Assembly (NCBI RefSeq): GCF_003852715.1
Contig: NZ_RIAV01000001.1
Coordinates: forward strand, 248,001-312,000
Length of the DNA stretch: 64,000 nucleotides
Direction: 5' to 3'
From: Ectobacillus antri
GTDB lineage: Bacteria > Bacillota > Bacilli > Bacillales > Bacillaceae_G
Shown here: positions 4,225 through 19,621 of the stretch, in pieces
How positions within the stretch are numbered: position 1 is the stretch's first letter
Layout of the letters: each line of letters begins with the position of its first letter
The notes under the pieces: generated by a model
What the model was told of the DNA's origin: nothing
Database searches by the model: none
What the model saw: the letters and a program-made list of their open reading frames with translations, nothing else
Program-made: the position numbers and the translations under genes

Positions 4225-4625
4225 ACTTTTCCCCAATTGTATCGTTCTTTTGCCCTTTCTTTGAAGGAAGGGCTTTCTTGAAAAACCTGTTGTTCTTGAT
4301 GTTCTGTCGACTTAATGGTGACGGAATATGTTTTACTCTTAGTCCCTTCTTTGTAACATCCTGTTTAAAGCGGACACACTTTACACTTTTCAATATCAAA
4401 GTAATAGGCCTGACTCTAGTTCGGATTCGTTTTCTTTGTTCCGGTTCGCGCCTTGCGAACCGCCATATGCCCAGTCGGAAACACATACACTGCATCTTTG
4501 TTAACTACAAGCTCTTTTATCTGGCGAAGTATATTGTCTTTAGGTACTACAATATCATAGATAAAAAAATAGGGACTGGATTGAAGGCTTTGCGTTTTTA
4601 CTTTTTCAGTGGCCTCATTCACCAA
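4225..4625 (-). pseudogene. IS1182-type transposase remnant (C-terminal part)
   Basis: On the - strand one frame reads ...KVKTQSLQ...PKDNILRQIKELVVNKD and VFPTGHMAVRKARTG; after a frameshift another frame continues CKVCPL, a stop, TGCYKEGTKSKTYSVTIKST and EHQEQQVF. The paired cysteines and TGCYKEGTKSKTYSV match the zinc-ribbon-like tail of IS1182-family DDE transposases. At least one frameshift and one stop are present and the catalytic domain is missing, so this is a dead fragment. Confidence 0.7.
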
Positions 4626-4882
4626 TCCCCCTTTTTATGGAATTATTGCAAGTTATCTGTTAAAGTATGAAACAAGCGTTCAATCTGATTTCGTAGATTG
4701 AAAATGGTTGCCCCCATCGCTGTTTGTAAGAAATCTGACATCACACGGCCGTATCCATTTTTGCTTCAGCCCTTCCTTTCTAACGGGTTAATCATGGGGG
4801 TATTATCTCTATAGGATTGGAAAGAACGGTGAATTGGCAGCTTTATGAGCAAATAGAGAACTAAATAGCAAGAGCTCCATGG
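4626..4882. other. Decayed noncoding stretch
   Basis: On the - strand, 4643-4757 holds a 37-codon open fragment without a start (SKNGYGRVMSDFLQTAMGAT, then IFNLRNQIERLFHTLTDNL), which looks like the end of an unknown protein. On the + strand around 4812-4862 another fragment (GLERTVNWQLYEQIEN) ends in a stop. I recognise neither; both look like leftovers around the dead transposase. Confidence 0.3.
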
Positions 4883-5560: not shown

Positions 5561-5608
5561 AAAGTATGGAGCATAGGGGGCTCGAACCCCTGACCTCTAC
5601 GCTGCCAG
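5561..5608. repeat. attL-like site: 48-bp copy of the tRNA-Ala 3' part
   Basis: These 48 bases are identical to 19543-19590, which includes the 3' half of the tRNA-Ala gene (T arm, variable loop and half of the anticodon arm) plus its 3' flank. After position 5608 the similarity stops abruptly. A tRNA 3'-end duplication with an integrase at the other end is the classic footprint of site-specific integration by a tyrosine recombinase. Confidence 0.9.
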
Positions 5609-6313: not shown

Positions 6314-6838
6314 ATGGATAAATACAGGAAATATATTGCGAAGATTCAGGACTTTTATAATAATGAGGAGTATGCAAAAGCTGTGCGACTTTGCTGTAAA
6401 TTAATAAAAGAATATCCCAATTACCCTGACGCATATTTTGAACGCGCGATGGCACGTTTGAAACAAGATAAGGATAAGCAAGCTTTTCTAGATTTTGAAA
6501 AAGTATTAGAACTAGATCCTCATTATCCTGGAGCAAAAGAAGAGAAGGGCGACGTATTAGCATCAGCAGCACTTAATCTAACAAGAAGCAAAATAAAAGG
6601 ACTAAGTTATTTACAGCATAAGATTAGGGTTAACACATTAAATACAGAAAAGCAATTCACGCTATGTACAGAACAACAATTTCCAGATCAAGAGCTCCAC
6701 GAGTTATTTGAACAGTACAGTAAAAGAGCTCATGCTGTTCACGATGAATATTTGCCGTACAAAGGGAAGAAGCAATTATGGAATATGTTGATGAACGATA
6801 AGAGTGAGAAAGGTTGGAAGTTTAAAAATGAGCAATGA
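6314..6838 (+). CDS. Tetratricopeptide-repeat protein
   Basis: 174 aa. Two TPR units are clear in the first 75 residues: YNNEEYAKAVRLCCKLIKEY, then PNYPDAYFERAMARLKQDKD and KQAFLDFEKVLELDPHYPGA. The rest is mostly helical and charged, without a DNA-binding or phosphatase motif. TPR arrays mediate protein-protein contacts; this protein is too short to be a Rap or PlcR-type regulator. It has a GGGGAAGAAAGT ribosome-binding site. Island cargo of unknown function. Confidence 0.65.
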   Translation: MDKYRKYIAKIQDFYNNEEYAKAVRLCCKLIKEYPNYPDAYFERAMARLKQDKDKQAFLDFEKVLELDPHYPGAKEEKGDVLASAALNLTRSKIKGLSYLQHKIRVNTLNTEKQFTLCTEQQFPDQELHELFEQYSKRAHAVHDEYLPYKGKKQLWNMLMNDKSEKGWKFKNEQ

Positions 6839-6878
6839 TGAATTAAACCAAATAAAAGTAAGGTTTTTTCATAAATTG

Positions 6879-7505
6879 TAGTTATTGTAAATGGACTAGT
6901 AGACCTTATAATGGTTGTTTCATCAGATGTTGAAGACGCTATTATGGGATTAGAACAGATGGCAAGAACTGCTACATTTAATTATTGCCACACAACGTGC
7001 TTCTGTTGATGTAATTATGGGTGTAAATATTCCTTCTCGTATCGCATTTGCGGTATTTTCACAGACTGGTTCAAGAACAATATTGGATTCTTCTGGTGCT
7101 GAGAAGTTGCTTGGAAGGGGAGATATGTTATTTATGCCCGCGGGCTCTTCTAGGCCAACACGAGTGCAAGGTGCCTTTTTATCAGACGACGAAGTAAACC
7201 GAGTTGTTTCTCATGTCATTTCACAGCAAAAAGCGAACTACCAAGAAGAGATGATGAATTTGGAGGCCCATGTAAAAAAAGAAGAAAAGCAATCTGCTAA
7301 AGATGACTTATATGAGGAAGTCGTTGCATTTGTTATTCAAGCACAAAGTGCATCTACTTCTTCGTTGCAGCGTAAGTTTAGAATCGGCTATGCACGCGCA
7401 TCGAGACTTATTGACACATTGGAGGCAGATGGGGTAATTGGCCCTTACGAGGGAAGTAAGCCAAGAAAAGTATTACTAAAAGATGTAAAGCAAAAAACAT
7501 CCTAA
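6879..7505 (+). pseudogene. DNA translocase FtsK/SpoIIIE, C-terminal remnant
   Basis: The first piece reads VVIVNGLVDLIMVVSSDVED, then [12 protein letters not shown] (expected VVIVDELADLMMVAS...RLAQMARAA). A small deletion near 6985 shifts the frame to [20 protein letters not shown]. From there the frame is open to 7505: [51 protein letters not shown], and a complete winged-helix gamma domain (about 60 residues; [18 protein letters not shown]) that in intact proteins reads KOPS/SRS sites. Walker A is missing. The match is closer to SpoIIIE than to SftA by the [14 protein letters not shown] segment. It is a non-functional fragment inside the island. Confidence 0.85.
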
Positions 7506-14040: not shown

Positions 14041-14167
14041 TTCTGTTGTAAACTAATTCATAGGAAGACCTCTTTTCTGGGATTAGTTGTGGTGACTTAA
14101 TTCTACCAAGAAAAGGTCTTCCTTTCTCTATGTTTACGGCTATTTACACAAAATATTTTATACTCTC

Positions 14168-14175
14168 ATTGCACC
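14168..14175. repeat. Right target-site duplication of the IS256-type element
   Basis: ATTGCACC, the partner of 12712-12719. Confidence 0.85.
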
Positions 14176-14229
14176 TCCTTGTTTTAAAGTATATAATCTA
14201 ACTATATAAATTTAACGGAGGAGACCAAC

Positions 14230-14622
14230 ATGAATGAACTATTTCGTTTAGCGCATGCGTATCAAATGTATAGACTTGGTAAAAGCACTGGATTAACAGG
14301 TCTTTTAGGGATTTTTGCTTCTATTGCTGTATTGTATTATCCGGTCAAGTATTGGAATGAGATTGTAAAATGGTTACATACATCTGAATTGATGGCTCCT
14401 ATCATGCAGAAAACTGCAAATGCAAGTGATTTAGCAGTATTCACAGCATTAATACTTACAGGTATCGTACTCATTTTTTTAGCAGTTATTGCTTTCTTTT
14501 TAGCTCTATACGTATTTGCTTTTATTGCTTTAACACTTCAAGTAGGATCTGTAATTCTAGCTAAAGTAATCATAAAAATTTTCAATATTCAACCCAAAAC
14601 AGTAATTTATAAAAAACGATGA
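14230..14622 (+). CDS. Small multi-spanning membrane protein
   Basis: 130 aa with a GGAGGAG ribosome-binding site. Hydrophobic stretches at about 24-41 ([18 protein letters not shown]) and at about 70-115 ([40 protein letters not shown]) suggest three membrane helices, with charged ends. No family recognised. It is followed by the broken DUF2325 gene after 13 bp, so they may have been co-transcribed. Confidence 0.55.
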
Positions 14623-14635
14623 GAGGAAATTACAT

Positions 14636-14943
14636 ATGAAAAAAACGATTTTTGTATTAGGTGGTTCACAAAAAAACACTCTTGAAAAATTAGCAGAAAA
14701 AAAGGGGGTAAATATTATTTTTCATGATGCGAAGAATAAAGGAGGTATTAAAAAAAGCTTTAAAAGTTTAATTAATAAGGCTGACGTTGTAGTATTTCAA
14801 TCTTAAGCTGGTGGACATGTTGCGATGGATGTAGCAAAAGAATTAGCTAAAAAAACGGGGTGCCTTTTCTGGTAAATAAAAGCTTTGGAGCAAGTTCAGC
14901 TATCGAATTAGGTGTTTCTTACCTTGAAAAAGCTATAGCTTAA
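14636..14943 (+). pseudogene. DUF2325-family protein, broken by a stop and a frameshift
   Basis: The frame begins [20 protein letters not shown] and contains [20 protein letters not shown] and DVVVFQS, which fits DUF2325 (small Rossmann-like proteins with a GG near the N-terminus). A TAA follows VVFQS (14803-14805), and about 60 bases later loss of one G in a G-run shifts the frame, after which VPFLVNKSFGASSAIELGVS continues to the natural end. Two independent lesions mean a dead gene. It has a GAGAGGAAATTAC ribosome-binding site. Confidence 0.7.
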
Positions 14944-14984
14944 GGAGTTTATGAATGATTATAATAACATACCAAATAAAAGAG

Positions 14985-15042
14985 TTCCATTCTAATTACG
15001 CAAGTAGTAGTAAACTTGTAGGTTAGAATGGCTTTTTTATTT
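14985..15042. terminator. Strong intrinsic terminator
   Basis: Long stem CCATTCTAA...CAAGT/ACTTG...TTAGAATGG followed by CTTTTTTATTTTTTT. Confidence 0.8.
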
Positions 15043-15066
15043 TTTTATCCGAAATAATCATCTATT

Positions 15067-15291
15067 CCAAATTTTCCCTATGTAACCGCAGGCTTGCACG
15101 ATCTGGAGAACCTTCAATGGCTAGGATGGTCACCAATTTTACAGGTATTACTAGTAGCTTTCATTTATCTATATTTGTCAAGCTTGGATAAACCTGTTTT
15201 AGGAAATCAAATAATAAAGATTGGCCTAATTGTATTTTTAGTAACGTATGGACTAACGTTCATCACACAGATGTTTATATTTACTGTGTGA
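15067..15291 (+). pseudogene. C-terminal end of a multi-spanning membrane protein
   Basis: The open frame reads PNFPYVTAGLHDLENLQWLG, WSPILQVLLVAFIYLYLSSL, then GNQIIKIGLIVFLVTYGLTF. There are two membrane helices and no good start with a ribosome-binding site (only TTG 15094). It looks like the last helices of a larger polytopic protein cut off on its 5' side. Family not assigned. Confidence 0.45.
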
Positions 15292-15324
15292 TTTAAATAA
15301 TCTTAAAAGAGGTGTCACGGCGAT

Positions 15325-15438
15325 ATGGAAAAGGAATTCAAGAAAAAAGCAATCATTATGGTCGTAATTGGGGTTGTAATCGCGTTACTTGGATTTACGA
15401 GCTTAATAAAGAGTGTTATAAATTTACTAGGGAATTAA
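15325..15438 (+). CDS. 37-aa single-helix membrane protein
   Basis: MEKEFKKKAIIMVVIGVVIA, then LLGFTSLIKSVINLLGN. A lysine-rich N-terminus precedes one membrane helix; AAAAGAGGTG serves as ribosome-binding site. It is the first of a run of very small genes, 5 bp before the next. Unknown function; small hydrophobic proteins in islands may be toxins or membrane modulators. Confidence 0.5.
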   Translation: MEKEFKKKAIIMVVIGVVIALLGFTSLIKSVINLLGN

Positions 15439-15443
15439 GAAAG

Positions 15444-15557
15444 ATGAAGTACTTTAAATTTAAACGGTTAACGAAAAAGAGAAAAGAATTTGCAAATATG
15501 GAGATGTTATTTGGGGGATTCCTGAATAAGTTTGCTGCTAGCGATTCCAAACGATAA
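15444..15557 (+). CDS. 37-aa basic protein
   Basis: MKYFKFKRLTKKRKEFANME, then MLFGGFLNKFAASDSKR; strongly basic N-terminus, no membrane helix. It begins 5 bp after the preceding small gene, so likely coupled to it. Just after it a start-less frame (VASLPVLAGAAIGYAYLCRQ) suggests a third, decayed member. Confidence 0.4.
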   Translation: MKYFKFKRLTKKRKEFANMEMLFGGFLNKFAASDSKR

Positions 15558-15708
15558 GCATCAAAGAGAATGGCTTGAAAATATGTAGCATCATTACCTG
15601 TATTAGCAGGAGCAGCAATAGGCTATGCATATTTATGTCGGCAAAAAGAACCAAAAAAATAGGATTTAGAGACTGAATTGAAAACTAGCTTTAGTTGAAT
15701 AAGAATTC

Positions 15709-15744
15709 GTCAAGGTTGTCTAATTAGACAGCCTCTTTTTCGGT
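15709..15744 (+). terminator. Intrinsic terminator
   Basis: Stem AGGTTGTCT/AGACAGCCT with an AATT loop and CTTTTT tail; ends the small-gene cluster. Confidence 0.8.
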
Positions 15745-15869
15745 TCAAAAATCAACATTTTAATTTAACAGAGCTCTTATTTATTATCTTTTTAGCCCCC
15801 TAATGAACTTGGACACTCTAAGGTGAGATTTTTTATACTTAGAGTAACAAGTGTCAGGGGGATTTTTTG

Positions 15870-16181
15870 ATGAAACGAAATAAATACTCGAAGGAATTTA
15901 AGTTACAAGTTGTTCGAGAAGCAAAAGAAGTTGGCAATTACGCAGCTGTCGCAAGACGTTATGAAATTCATACGAATCTCATTTATAAATGGGTAAAAGA
16001 ATTTGAACAAGATGTTGAAACGATTCTATCAGAAGATGTTCCTTCTCCTGTAGAAGTGAAACAGTTGGAACAAGAGAATGATCAACTGAAGAAACTTCTG
16101 GGTGAGAAAGATTTAGAGATTTCCATCTTGCGCGATTTACTAAAAAAGAAGAACCCTCATTTACGGAAAAGCTGGAAGTAG
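15870..16181 (+). CDS. IS3-family OrfA (HTH/leucine-zipper protein)
   Basis: 103 aa from ATG 15870 (AGGGGGATTTTTTG upstream). A helix-turn-helix of the IS3 OrfA type (YSKEFKLQVVREAKEVGNYA, AVARRYEIHTNLIYKWVKEF) is followed by a heptad-leucine region (VKQLEQENDQLKKLLGEKDL). OrfA binds the terminal repeats and can repress transposition. The last codons contain the frameshift signal that makes the OrfAB transposase. Confidence 0.9.
   Translation: MKRNKYSKEFKLQVVREAKEVGNYAAVARRYEIHTNLIYKWVKEFEQDVETILSEDVPSPVEVKQLEQENDQLKKLLGEKDLEISILRDLLKKKNPHLRKSWK
16142..16148 (+). promoter_or_regulatory. Programmed -1 frameshift heptamer
   Basis: In the OrfA frame the sequence reads CTA AAA AAG, i.e. A-AAA-AAG. 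Slipping back one base continues into KEEPSFTEKLEVAKSWIDKG and the OrfB frame without a stop. This is the standard IS3-family arrangement for producing OrfAB. Confidence 0.85.
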
Positions 16182-16219
16182 CGAAAAGTTGGATTGACAA
16201 AGGCTATCCAAAACAACAA

Positions 16220-17098
16220 GTGTTACGGATTTTGGGGATTTCTCGCTCTACCTATTACTATCAAGAGCGTACAGAGGATTCCGTCCAAACGGTAAGTGAG
16301 GGCCGACCAGCACCAGGATTTTCTTTGACAACCGATAAAAAGCGAATTGGTGACGAACAAATCAAAGAGTGGTTGTCCGAACTAATAGCCGGAGATGGTT
16401 ATGTATACGGCTATCGAAAAATCACGTATGCGCTCAGACGAGAGTACCAACTGATTGTGAACCACAAAAAGGTATATCGCTTATGTAAGGAACTCAACCT
16501 CCTTCGCCCACAGCGTCGTTTGCGCCTTCGGCACAAGAAACGTCTCGCACGTAACCGAGTGATTACAAACTCCAATGAATTGTGGGAAATGGATATCAAA
16601 TACGGTTACATAGAAGGAGAAGATCGTTTTTTCTTTATTCTCTCTGTCATTGATGTGTATGACCGTGCAATTATCGCTTATTACATTGGAACATCTTGTA
16701 CAGCACATGATGCCGTACATACTGTGCAACACGCATTATGGAAACGTCGCCAATTTGAAGAAAAGCACAAACCCGTCATTCGAACAGACAATGGTCCTCA
16801 GTTCGTCTCTCGTGCCTTTGAAGAAGCCTGCGAAAATGTTGGTGTAGAACACGAGAGAATTCCACCTCGTACACCGAATATGAATGCACATATTGAGGCA
16901 TTTCACAGTATTTTAGAAGAAGAATGTATGAAGAGACATGTGTTTGGGACGTATCGTGAAGCATACGAAACTGTAAGCCAGTTTATGCATTTCTATAACG
17001 AACGTCGGATTCATGCCAGTATTGGATATCGGCCGCCTAAAGAATTTTATGAATTAAGAAGGCAAGGAAACGCTGATACGGCTCAAGTTCGTGTGTAA
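16220..17098 (+). CDS. IS3-family OrfB, DDE transposase (integrase core)
   Basis: 292 aa if initiated at GTG 16220; in vivo mostly expected as an OrfAB fusion, since the frame is open upstream to the slippery site. HTH_21-like region (GYVYGYRKITYALRREYQLI), then rve core with candidate triad D in WEMDIKYGY, D in RTDNGPQF and E in HIEAFHSILEEECM. The catalytic residues and the C-terminal YNERRIHASIGYRPPKEFYE are complete. Confidence 0.9.
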   Translation: MLRILGISRSTYYYQERTEDSVQTVSEGRPAPGFSLTTDKKRIGDEQIKEWLSELIAGDGYVYGYRKITYALRREYQLIVNHKKVYRLCKELNLLRPQRRLRLRHKKRLARNRVITNSNELWEMDIKYGYIEGEDRFFFILSVIDVYDRAIIAYYIGTSCTAHDAVHTVQHALWKRRQFEEKHKPVIRTDNGPQFVSRAFEEACENVGVEHERIPPRTPNMNAHIEAFHSILEEECMKRHVFGTYREAYETVSQFMHFYNERRIHASIGYRPPKEFYELRRQGNADTAQVRV

Positions 17099-17231
17099 GT
17101 AGTGAGGTAATCATCATTTGATTGCCTCACCAATAAAAACGAAGGAATTTGTAGGAATTTTGAGATTAGGTGAGATTTTAACTGGAAAGTGTCCAAATTC
17201 AGGGGGTTAACCCGCGCTCCTGTTGTTTTAG

Positions 17232-17397
17232 GTTACACCATGTATAGGTGTATGGATTGAAATATGGTCAAATTCCTTTTAGGAAATCCCGAATGTCAAG
17301 TTACACCTTGTATAGGTGTATGGATTGAAATAATTGCGCGCTCACTCATAAAAATGTTTTGGATGGTTACACCTTGTATAGGTGTATGGATTGAAAT
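17232..17397 (+). CRISPR. Three-repeat CRISPR remnant without cas genes
   Basis: Three 32-bp repeats at 17232-17263, 17300-17331 and 17366-17397, each GTTACACC(A/T)TGTATAGG...TGGATTGAAAT. Copies two and three are identical; copy one differs at one base. Unique spacers of 36 bp (17264-17299) and 34 bp (17332-17365) separate them. The 3' end ATTGAAAT resembles the 5'-handle-forming end of type I-B/III-type repeats. No cas gene is in the window. The left side is cut about 20 bases before the first repeat by the IS3 element; on the right the ISL3 inverted repeat begins at the very next base. Confidence 0.85.
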
Positions 17398-19268
17398 GAA
17401 AAATGGTTCTTTCCAAAGATGGTTGAAATTCTAACAATTTGTCCATACTGTTCCTAATTATTTAAGTGAAGGATGGTGCCGTAAAGTGGACGATGTGGTG
17501 AAACTGTTAGATGAAAATCTTAGCTATATCTCGCATGAAATCATAGAAGATACACTATTTATTCGGGTTGCCTCGGAGAAGTTATCAGTAATATGCCCTT
17601 CCTGTAATACAGCTTCTACTAAAGTTCATTCTCGCTATGAAAGAACGTTTCATGATTTGCCCATGCAAGGAAAGAAAGTTGTATATGTAATCCATAACCG
17701 CAAAATGTTCTGTCACAATGTGCGATGCCACCGCAAAACGTTTGCCGAACCCTTTTTATTTTTGCCCTATAAAGCGAAAAAATCCACTCGCTTGGAACAA
17801 GAAATCATAAAAGTCGCTCAACATGTCAGTTCGCTCACAGCTGAAAGGATATTGAACTGCGGTATTGCGAAGGTTGGAAAAAGCACGATTTGCAGTTTGC
17901 TAAAAAAAACAATCACAATTGATAAAATCCATGTAAAAAGAGTCTGCATTGATGATTTTGCTTTAAAAAAAAGACGTACCTACGGTACGATTATGGTCGA
18001 TTTAGATACACATCGAGTGGTGGACTTAATTCCTTCTAGAGACGGCGAAGACGTGATAAATTGGCTGAAGACTTTTCCAAATCTAGAAATCGTCTCTAGA
18101 GATGGTTCTATTACGTATGCACATTCCATTACAGAGGCCCATCCGAAGGCGATTCAAATAAGTGATCGGTTTCACTTGCTTCAAAATCTGACAAGGTATT
18201 GTATAGAATTCTTCAAATCTGTCGTAAAGACGAACATCAAAATCCCAGTGACGACTTTAAAGGAAGCACCTCCTGTGAATGTGAATCATCTAAATATACC
18301 GTTCGCAGAAAAGGTCAAAGCAGCGAATGGCTTACTAGATAACGGCTATACATTTCATCAAATAGCGAAAGTTTTACAAATGGATATTAGAACAGTGAAA
18401 AAGATTGTATCCATGAGCTTACACGAACAGGAAGAATATCTGATGGGTACAATGAAACAATCTCATGCATACAAAATGTTACAAAAAGAGAAACAGATAT
18501 CTGAAGTACGGCAACTGTATAAACAAGGGAACTCCAAGCGGAGTATCGCACGTCAACTCGGGTTAGATCCTAGGACCATCTCCAACTATTTGAATCCGGA
18601 AACAACAGGAACGCATGCAAGCTTAGGGCAAACAAGACCAAGCATATTAGATCCCTATGCAGAAGAAATCAAACGGTATGTCACCAATCGATATACAGCT
18701 ATTCAGATTGATGCCATACTTCGAACGAAAGGGTATAAAGGTTCTGTCTCTACTGTGGGTCATTATATTTCCAAACTGAAAAAATCCTTATTTGAAGACC
18801 GTCAATTATTACAGAATGCGGAGTTTGAATTTGTGAAACGAAAAGAGATTATCCCTCTTTTGTTCCATTCAAAGAAAACAAAGACCAAATTATCTGAAAA
18901 ACAATTATAGGAGGTTTACAAGTTGCATCCGAAAATCGAATCTATCATAGATTTGGTGGATGACTTTAGAGACATCTTGAGACAAAAAAGAAATGATGCG
19001 CTGCAGAGCTGGATGGACCGAGCTACTGCGCTGGATGCTCAACTGCTTAACAGCTTTATCAATGGAATCGAAAGGGACTTGACAGCTGTGAAAAATGCCA
19101 TCACTTATGAATACAACAATGGTCTAGCCGAAGGGGAAATTAATAAATTAAAGTTGGTGAAGCGCACCATGTATGGTCGGTGTCTGTTCGATTTGTTGAG
19201 AAACAAAATTTTATTACTTGAATAGGAAAAAAGTTCTTTTCAACCAACTTTGGAAAGAACCATTTTTC
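17398..19268 (+). mobile_element. ISL3-family insertion sequence
   Basis: Terminal inverted repeats: left from 17398 GAAAAATGGTTCTTTCCAAA, right (other strand, ending at 19268) identical over the first 21 bases and then nearly so (...G(A/T)TGGTTGAAA). It encodes a DDE transposase interrupted by an amber codon. No 8-bp duplication is seen: the left flank is CRISPR repeat and the right flank is integrase, so the borders have been rearranged by deletion or recombination. Confidence 0.85.
17486..19225 (+). pseudogene. ISL3-family transposase split by an in-frame TAG
   Basis: The first part (17486-18907, 474 aa) has the N-terminal zinc-finger pattern C-P-S-C...C-H-N-V-R-C-H, the HTH and the core with D in CIDDFALKKRRTYG and D in VSRDGS. 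A TAG at 18908-18910 interrupts it; the same frame then continues through QSWMDRATALDAQLLNSFIN and ends with NGLAEGEINKLKLVKRTMYG, which carries the catalytic Glu. A restart is possible at TTG 18923 (AGGAGG just before), but it would yield only a 100-aa tail. Unless the stop is read through, the enzyme is inactive. Confidence 0.85.
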
Positions 19269-19269
19269 G

Positions 19270-19422
19270 CTTGCAAAAAACACAGGGATAAATGCTAAGG
19301 TAGTAGCTGATCGTTTGGGGCATTCCCGCGTACAGATTACTCTAGATTATTATACACACACGGATGAAGAAGTGCAGAAGCAAACATCAGAGATATTAGC
19401 AGGCTTTCTACACAATGAATAA
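19270..19422 (+). pseudogene. Tyrosine recombinase (integrase), C-terminal remnant
   Basis: The frame reads NTGINAKVVADRLGHSRVQI, TLDYYTHTDEEVQKQTSEIL, AGFLHNE. It contains the conserved LGH (second catalytic His box) and the TLDYYTH with the nucleophilic tyrosine. The preceding 300 or so residues, including both arginines, are missing; the ISL3 element sits exactly at the break. Its position beside the tRNA-borne att site identifies it as the island's own integrase. Confidence 0.85.
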
Positions 19423-19542: not shown

Positions 19543-19590
19543 AAAGTATGGAGCATAGGGGGCTCGAACCCCTGACCTCTACGCTGCCAG
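19543..19590. repeat. attR-like site within the tRNA-Ala gene
   Basis: Identical to 5561-5608. It covers the 3' flank and 3' half of the tRNA gene up to the anticodon loop. Confidence 0.9.
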
Positions 19591-19621
19591 CGTAGCGCTC
19601 TCCCAGCTGAGCTAATGCCCC
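19549..19621 (-). tRNA. tRNA-Ala (anticodon GGC)
   Basis: Read on the - strand from 19621: acceptor GGGGCAT pairs with ATGCTCC, D arm GCTCAGCTGGGAGAGC, anticodon arm CTACG-CTGGCAG-CGTAG with anticodon GGC, and T arm AGGGG-TTCGAGC-CCCCT. 73 nt with discriminator A; CCA is not encoded. All stems are complete, so integration of the island has preserved the gene. Confidence 0.95.

What the first reader, a model, noticed from the sequence alone, without database searches (positions are those of the whole stretch)
17232..17397. Orphan three-repeat CRISPR remnant wedged between IS3 and ISL3
Three 32-bp repeats (ending ATTGAAAT) with 36- and 34-bp spacers are directly abutted by the ISL3 inverted repeat on the right and cut about 20 bases upstream on the left by IS3. 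No cas gene is in 64 kb. CRISPR is uncommon in B. cereus-like genomes, so this may be the last trace of a system carried by the island and destroyed by insertion sequences. Spacer 1 is an open frame in phase +1, as expected for a protospacer from coding DNA.
Basis: partly seen in the sequence, partly recalled or inferred. Interest (0 to 1): 0.65.

Follow-up and report, generated by a model that had tools for sequence, protein, structure and literature searches.

The report
Stray array of a Cas12f1 CRISPR
The three repeats are a real CRISPR fragment, but not the last trace of a lost system: the same genome still holds an intact-looking miniature Cas12f1 CRISPR locus with the same repeat about 197 kb away, whose array looks as if another CRISPR type's spacer-adding machinery could have filled it.

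Summary
In detail: three 32-bp repeats (17232-17263, 17300-17331, 17366-17397), spacers of 36 and 34 nt, a 21-nt spacer stub on the left and an ISL3 inverted repeat directly on the right. The reading "last trace of a destroyed system" is not. The same repeat forms a 16-repeat array 197 kb away on the same contig, downstream of an intact-looking 493-aa Cas12f1 (type V-F1, formerly V-U3) and a structured RNA, presumably the tracrRNA, supported by paired changes. The window array is a satellite of that system without leader or tracrRNA, bounded by two insertion sequences inside a tRNA-Ala integrative site whose integrase is truncated. It could work only in trans; transcription is unproven and no protospacer was found. 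The main array and its Priestia endophytica relative have type I-C-like repeats and leader ends, although no cas1 or cas8c was found in this genome. A Bacillus arachidis Cas12f1 repeat and one Clostridium novyi V-U repeat resemble a type I-B repeat instead; two further repeats resemble neither. This suggests, without proving, that some V-F1 arrays are filled by a host's type I adaptation proteins, which is testable. The array itself is ordinary.

The parts
17211..17231 (+). 21-nt remnant of a spacer, cut by IS3
   Evidence: IS3 right inverted-repeat end at about 17210; no match to the 15 inter-repeat main-array spacers tested (its last 20 nt)
17232..17263 (+). CRISPR repeat 1 (one loop difference from the main-array consensus)
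17264..17299 (+). spacer 1, 36 nt; no protospacer found
17300..17331 (+). CRISPR repeat 2, identical to the Cas12f1 array consensus
17332..17365 (+). spacer 2, 34 nt; no protospacer found
17366..17397 (+). CRISPR repeat 3, identical to the Cas12f1 array consensus
15792..17210 (+). IS3-family element, ends approximate; no clear target-site duplication
   Evidence: Pfam HTH_Tnp_1, rve; ends by inverted-repeat alignment
17398..19268 (+). ISL3-family element, transposase frame interrupted by a stop at 18908-18910; right end may reach about 19281; no clear 8-bp duplication
   Evidence: Pfam DDE_Tnp_ISL3
19283..19422 (+). last 44 codons of a tyrosine integrase, truncated at the ISL3 junction
   Evidence: 98.8% collinear with G003, which has a 378-aa copy; Pfam Phage_integrase on the fragment is below its cut-off (17.1 of 27.1 bits), on the G003 copy 8.5e-29
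19549..19621 (-). tRNA-Ala (GGC), integration site
   Evidence: ARAGORN
19543..19590 (.). 48-bp att-like direct repeat at the tRNA 3' end
   Evidence: 100% identical to 5561-5608
5561..5608 (.). other copy of the 48-bp att-like direct repeat

Best explanation
The feature is a detached satellite array of a type V-F1 (Cas12f1, V-U3) CRISPR system whose effector gene, presumed tracrRNA and main array lie about 197 kb away (C1:64915-67798). Shown by sequence: the same repeat, an intact-looking effector, one conserved structured RNA beside it, no leader and no such RNA at the window array, both array ends bordered by insertion sequences. Inferred: if transcribed, its two crRNAs would join the tracrRNA made at the main locus and guide Cas12f1 in trans to cut DNA matching the spacers; without a leader it should not gain spacers, so it is at best a frozen memory. 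Also inferred: the arrays of this system were filled by type I-C adaptation proteins (Cas1-Cas2-Cas4) that recognise their I-C-like leader end and repeat, and that are no longer detectable in this genome.
For: Same repeat: a 22-nt repeat pattern with up to 3 mismatches hits the genome 20 times, 19 in the two arrays and one lone look-alike; 2 of 3 window repeats are 32/32. Effector: PADLOC Cas12f 7.9e-140, Cas12u3 8.8e-135; PDB 8hr5 2.3e-116, named CnCas12f1 in PMC13186708 (passage); D280, E378, D455 and the zinc cysteines align (roles recalled). tracrRNA: 22 consensus pairs, 8 with changes on both sides, in 4 sequences of 3 organisms; one hit in the genome, C1:66437-66559, which is a training sequence, and none in the window. 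The main array is also cut, inside its 17th repeat. I-C link: V-F1 leader ends aaaaaatcgct and aaaaatcgca; 10 of 13 I-C-like arrays (12 genomes) end in TCGC[TA]; mean leader match 12.4 of 20 against 6.2 at null positions; repeat 23 of 32 to the B. halodurans I-C repeat, 0 of 1000 shuffles.
Against: No transcription data. A terminator-like match ends 10 nt before repeat 1 and no forward promoter-like match lies in 16900-17500. No spacer is shared with the main array and no protospacer was found, so targeting is unshown. tracr-repeat pairing is not settled: the best predicted duplex (-25.9 kcal/mol, 0 of 300 mononucleotide shuffles as low) uses L009:11451-11484, which overlaps the RNA's own consensus helices; the expected 3' segment gives -16.4, and window repeat 1 gives -21.7, reached by 11 of 300 shuffles. 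How the fragment came here is open: no clear target duplications, yet no second full ISL3 copy, and no second IS3 left end, in the genome as recombination partner. The repeat comparison with I-C arrays is partly circular, as the pattern was the repeat's 3' half; the leader was not selected. I-C cas genes were checked for 1 of 13 arrays.
Confidence: 0.8

Rival explanations
1. Remnant of a former type I-C system: the repeats are I-C repeats and the I-C cas genes were lost.
For: I-C-like repeat (22-25 of 32 identical to 13 I-C-like arrays) and, at the main array, leader end; a lone repeat GTCGCACCCC...GTGTATGGATTGAAAT at C1:421381-421412.
Against: Identity with the Cas12f1 array is 32/32 for two of three repeats. 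The first repeats of the multi-copy I-C-like arrays printed with 3 or more tail hits have TGCGTGG where this one has TGTATGG (single TGCATGG and TGTGTGG copies do occur in the list). No Cas1 or Cas8c.
Confidence: 0.06
2. Dead relic: same identity as in the best explanation, but the scrap is not transcribed and does nothing.
For: No leader, no tracrRNA, IS on both sides, terminator-like match before repeat 1.
Against: Repeats 2 and 3 are unmutated, and the IS3 genes read towards the array, so read-through is possible (inference).
Confidence: 0.5
3. The array arrived as cargo of the tRNA-Ala integrative element rather than from the main locus.
For: It lies between the two att-like repeats, next to the truncated integrase; V-U arrays are reported on a phage-satellite-like island in Clostridium novyi (PMC8473940, sections 11 and 15).
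Against: G003 has the same site and an intact integrase with different cargo and no such repeat; the same repeat lies on the same contig.
Confidence: 0.2
4. Regulatory mini-array that guides Cas12f1 to the cell's own genes.
For: Short arrays with such roles exist (CreA; search listing and abstract start of PMC8501985 only).
Against: Outside the arrays and the lone repeat the own genome gave only two 19-nt stretches with one mismatch, at the repeat end and start of spacer 1, E 0.3.
Confidence: 0.03
5. Assembly artefact joining unrelated pieces at insertion sequences.
For: Draft genome in 74 contigs; IS at both borders.
Against: The IS3 left end (to 15860; the rest of IS3 was not queried) gives one match in the genome and ISL3 one full copy, inside a 479-kb contig; the right flank is 98.8% collinear with G003.
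Confidence: 0.04

Closest known systems
Type V-F1 CRISPR-Cas12f1 (V-U3), e.g. CnCas12f1 (PDB 8HR5)
   Same: Effector alignable over 473 residues; structured RNA between gene and array; no Cas1, as V-U3 systems are said to lack adaptation proteins (PMC7229846, passages)
   Different: Repeat and leader are I-C-like; a second array lies 197 kb away without leader or tracrRNA
Priestia endophytica DSM 13796 cas12f1 locus (NZ_FOXX01000019.1)
   Same: Cas12f1 71% identical, tracrRNA region conserved, I-C-like repeats and leader end; L062 matches this named record
   Different: Array repeats strongly diverged from each other; a second array was not looked for
Clostridium novyi V-U (Cas14a) island with two arrays (PMC8473940, sections 11 and 15)
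   Same: V-U effectors and two arrays, in an integrative element
   Different: Two effectors with different repeats; one repeat matches a C. difficile I-B repeat (26 of 29), the other neither I-B nor I-C
Bacillus halodurans type I-C array (PMC6519985)
   Same: Leader end TCGCT and 32-bp repeat ending TGGATTGAAAT (passages)
   Different: Own type I-C cas genes, effector not Cas12f1 (gene set recalled)

Membership tests
Type V-F1 (main locus) | Cas12f1-family effector with complete RuvC motifs | tested here: met
   residue roles recalled
Type V-F1 (main locus) | tracrRNA-like structured RNA encoded beside the effector | tested here: met
   (computed; expression not tested)
Type V-F1 (main locus) | tracrRNA pairs with the repeat | tested here: inconclusive
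   strong duplex predicted, but with a segment that overlaps the RNA's own helices; expected 3' segment weaker
Type V-F1 (main locus) | adjacent CRISPR array with variable spacers | tested here: met
   16 repeats, 16 full spacers of 33-36 nt
Type V-F1 (main locus) | no adaptation genes (V-U3 form) | tested here: met
   no Cas1 in genome; Cas2 and Cas4 not searched
Type V-F1 (main locus) | PAM-dependent DNA cleavage | not testable with these tools
   needs an experiment; no protospacers found, so no PAM inferred
Array of the V-F1 system (window) | repeat as in the effector's array | tested here: met
   2 of 3 repeats 32/32, one 31/32
Array of the V-F1 system (window) | leader upstream of the first repeat | tested here: not met
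   spacer stub and IS3 instead
Array of the V-F1 system (window) | tracrRNA close by | tested here: not met
   no hit in window up to E 10
Type I-C | cas8c and cas1 present | tested here: not met
Type I-C | I-C repeat and leader end | tested here: inconclusive
   similar but distinct repeat; same leader end at the main array only

The most novel reading that the evidence does not exclude
Cas12f1 (V-F1) systems, which lack Cas1, keep their arrays as adaptation substrates for whatever type I machinery their hosts tend to carry, by matching its repeat and, where looked at, its leader end: I-C in this genome and Priestia endophytica, I-B in Bacillus arachidis and one Clostridium novyi array. Here the donor machinery is gone and the arrays are stranded and being broken up by insertion sequences.
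Probability: 0.4. Interest if true: 0.68.

Novelty: new member of a known kind. Interest (0 to 1): 0.42.

Why it matters
As a remnant it is ordinary. As a pointer it is useful: it leads to a Cas12f1 locus with a predicted tracrRNA, and to a concrete, testable answer to how V-F1 systems without cas1 obtain spacers, namely through type I adaptation proteins that see a matching leader end and repeat. [quoted passage not shown] I did not see the V-F1/I-C leader and repeat match in what the searches showed; of their listings I opened only PMC13186708, PMC7229846, PMC8473940, PMC8616872, PMC12814883 and PMC12669027, as passages or single sections. Subscription papers are mostly not in that library.

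Tried and rejected
Protospacers: the window array against phage and plasmid records (none); the main array likewise (11 and 12 records, nothing better than E 0.3); the window array against 19 genomes of the family at E up to 1 (17 of 19 have some match; outside the arrays the best is E 0.005, and ten of the loci were re-aligned and judged chance); five patterns in viral contigs (none). There only 4 of 18 full spacers were tried, by exact 18-20 nt ends, one also as a degenerate peptide pattern. The repeat and Cas12f1 in viral contigs: none.

Type I-C origin: rejected as main explanation (see rivals). Rfam gave only two sub-threshold matches at the main locus, taken as chance. A target-site duplication was sought for both elements: best 3 nt for IS3 and 5 nt for ISL3; of 400 random boundary pairs 384 reach 3 and 101 reach 5. 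The true right end of ISL3 stays uncertain because a remnant on C16 shares about 14 nt beyond the symmetrical part.

Dropped before counts: arrays with fewer than 3 tail hits, less than 100 nt upstream sequence, N in the leader, or a repeated leader; 13 arrays of 12 genomes remained, out of the loci given for (61 of 397 genomes matched) and the stretches. 3 of the 13 do not end in TCGC[TA]. Against the general model: the second C. novyi V-U repeat and the G269 repeat match neither B. halodurans I-C nor C. difficile I-B clearly (the G269 repeat reaches 17 of 32 to I-C on one strand, 3 of 1000 shuffles as high). L031 was fetched and not used; L139 entered only the scripts.

Full report
Observation. 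The window holds three 32-bp repeats at 17232-17263, 17300-17331 and 17366-17397 with spacers of 36 and 34 nt. In 20 first-order Markov windows the best 32-mer self-match at offset 60-75 was 19-23; here it is 32. Left of repeat 1 there is a 21-nt stub and then the right end of an IS3-type element; right of repeat 3 the inverted repeat of an ISL3-type element begins at once.

The system it belongs to. A search of the own genome (3,490,928 bases, 74 contigs; the window is C1:248001-312000) found the same repeat in a second array. That array, C1:66726-67798 (L009:11727-12799), has 16 full repeats (15 identical to the consensus, one with a terminal change), 16 full spacers of 33-36 nt, and a 17th repeat cut after 14 nt, followed by DNA of a transposase element. 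Upstream lies a 493-aa protein, C1:64915-66396, whose best PADLOC models are Cas12f (7.9e-140) and Cas12u3 (8.8e-135) and whose best solved relative is 8hr5 (2.3e-116), which PMC13186708 names CnCas12f1. The RuvC and zinc motif residues align with it (their roles are recalled).

tracrRNA. Between gene and array, C1:66437-66559 is conserved with Priestia endophytica and with two copies on a Bacillus arachidis plasmid. RNAalifold gives 22 pairs, 8 of them with changes on both sides. A covariance model built from these four finds one copy in the own genome (150 of 278 first-look candidates were scored) and none in the window. Pairing with the repeat is less clear. The best duplex is -25.9 kcal/mol, 0 of 300 shuffles as stable, but it uses L009:11451-11484, which overlaps the RNA's own consensus helices. 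The 3' segment with CCATAC, complementary to GTATGG of the repeat, gives -16.4; window repeat 1 gives -21.7, which 11 of 300 shuffles reach.

What this makes of the finding. The window array has no leader, no tracrRNA and no effector of its own. It could act only through the Cas12f1 and tracrRNA of the main locus (inference). Transcription is unproven: no forward promoter-like match lies in 16900-17500 and a terminator-like match ends 10 nt before repeat 1, though IS3 genes read towards it. No spacer is shared between the arrays, and no protospacer was found in the collections tried, a search that for viral contigs covered 4 of 18 spacers.

The place. A 48-bp copy of the tRNA-Ala(GGC) 3' end is repeated at 5561-5608 and 19543-19590, so this is an integrative site. 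G003, a one-contig genome of the same genus, has the site with a 378-aa integrase; in the window only its last 44 codons remain, to the right of ISL3. The G003 site has no DNA matching this IS3, the array or ISL3, and the other three genus genomes have no match to the array better than E 0.07. The DNA left of IS3 (14041-15790) is absent from them; G002 matches only the IS3 end. Neither element has a clear duplication. ISL3 has one full copy and the IS3 left end one match in the genome (the rest of IS3 was not queried), so a misassembly is unlikely, but the route by which the fragment came is open.

Distribution. A Cas12f1 match at E up to 1e-40 occurs in 3 of 397 genomes of the order: this one, P. 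endophytica (71%) and G269 (36%); the other three genus genomes have only matches of 7e-19 or weaker, which I take for TnpB relatives without having tested it. At the same limit one plasmid record of 72,556 has a relative, B. arachidis at 49%, and no phage record of 50,697 does.

Link to type I adaptation. The genome has no Cas1 and no Cas8c match. Yet the last bases of the main array's leader, ttattaaaaaatcgct, match those of I-C arrays. Of 13 I-C-like arrays (12 genomes of the order) with usable leaders, 10 end in TCGC[TA]; the mean match over the last 20 nt is 12.4 against 6.2 at null positions for this genome, and 11.2 against 5.8 for P. endophytica. That such arrays are I-C was checked for L138 (Pfam Cas1 and Csd1), and the 42-nt leader-repeat of L141 equals the published B. 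halodurans I-C substrate (PMC6519985, passages). The repeat comparison with these arrays is partly circular because the search pattern was its 3' half; the leader comparison is not.

Repeats across Cas12f1 systems. Against the B. halodurans I-C repeat the own repeat scores 23 of 32 and a P. endophytica copy 25 of 32 (0 of 1000 shuffles each); against a C. difficile I-B repeat (PMC7064742, passages) they do not stand out (64 and 89 of 1000). The B. arachidis repeat and one C. novyi V-U repeat (PMC8473940) score 25 and 26 of 29 against I-B (0 of 1000 each) and do not stand out against I-C. The second C. novyi repeat and that of G269 match neither clearly. So 4 of 6 repeats follow a type I repeat. 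That spacers are in fact inserted by type I proteins is inference.

Verdict. A real but ordinary satellite array of a known kind of system, wrongly read as the last trace of a lost one; the interesting part lies in the main locus and in how such Cas1-less systems get their spacers.

Noticed in passing
L064:4290-4391 (-), 4483-4648, 6584-6742, 6811-6912 (+) (Bacillus arachidis plasmid NZ_CP127374.1): cas12f1 (annotated 'transposase') is flanked on both sides by three-repeat arrays and tracrRNA copies in inverted orientation, a palindromic locus.
   Followed up: partly
L062:3464-4071 (Priestia endophytica): About ten strongly diverged repeats at mostly 61-66-nt spacing; some keep a perfect hairpin by paired changes (e.g. 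CACATCC/GGATGTG, ATATCC/GGATAT), others do not fold that way.
   Followed up: partly
L030:4382-4413 (G000:C1:421381-421412): A lone CRISPR-like repeat GTCGCACCCCGAGTGGGTGTATGGATTGAAAT with a type I-C-like start and the V-F1 tail, perhaps beside an insertion-sequence end: a third CRISPR trace in this genome.
   Followed up: no
L103:2287-2359 (G000:C16): A small palindrome of the ISL3 tail (GGTTCTTTCC...GAAAAGAACC) without the element; shares about 14 nt beyond the inverted repeat with the window copy.
   Followed up: no
L009:1496-3750 and 15146-17398: The main Cas12f1 locus lies between an ORF6N-like plus AAA_15 ATPase pair and two cytosine methylase-like ORFs (recalled, not scanned), with several transposase-like blocks between (one scanned): possibly a defence-rich island.
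   Followed up: no
window 14636-14943: A small ORF resembling DUF2325 (recalled) is broken by several stops, next to a 130-aa membrane-like protein; the stretch is absent from the other three genus genomes.
   Followed up: no
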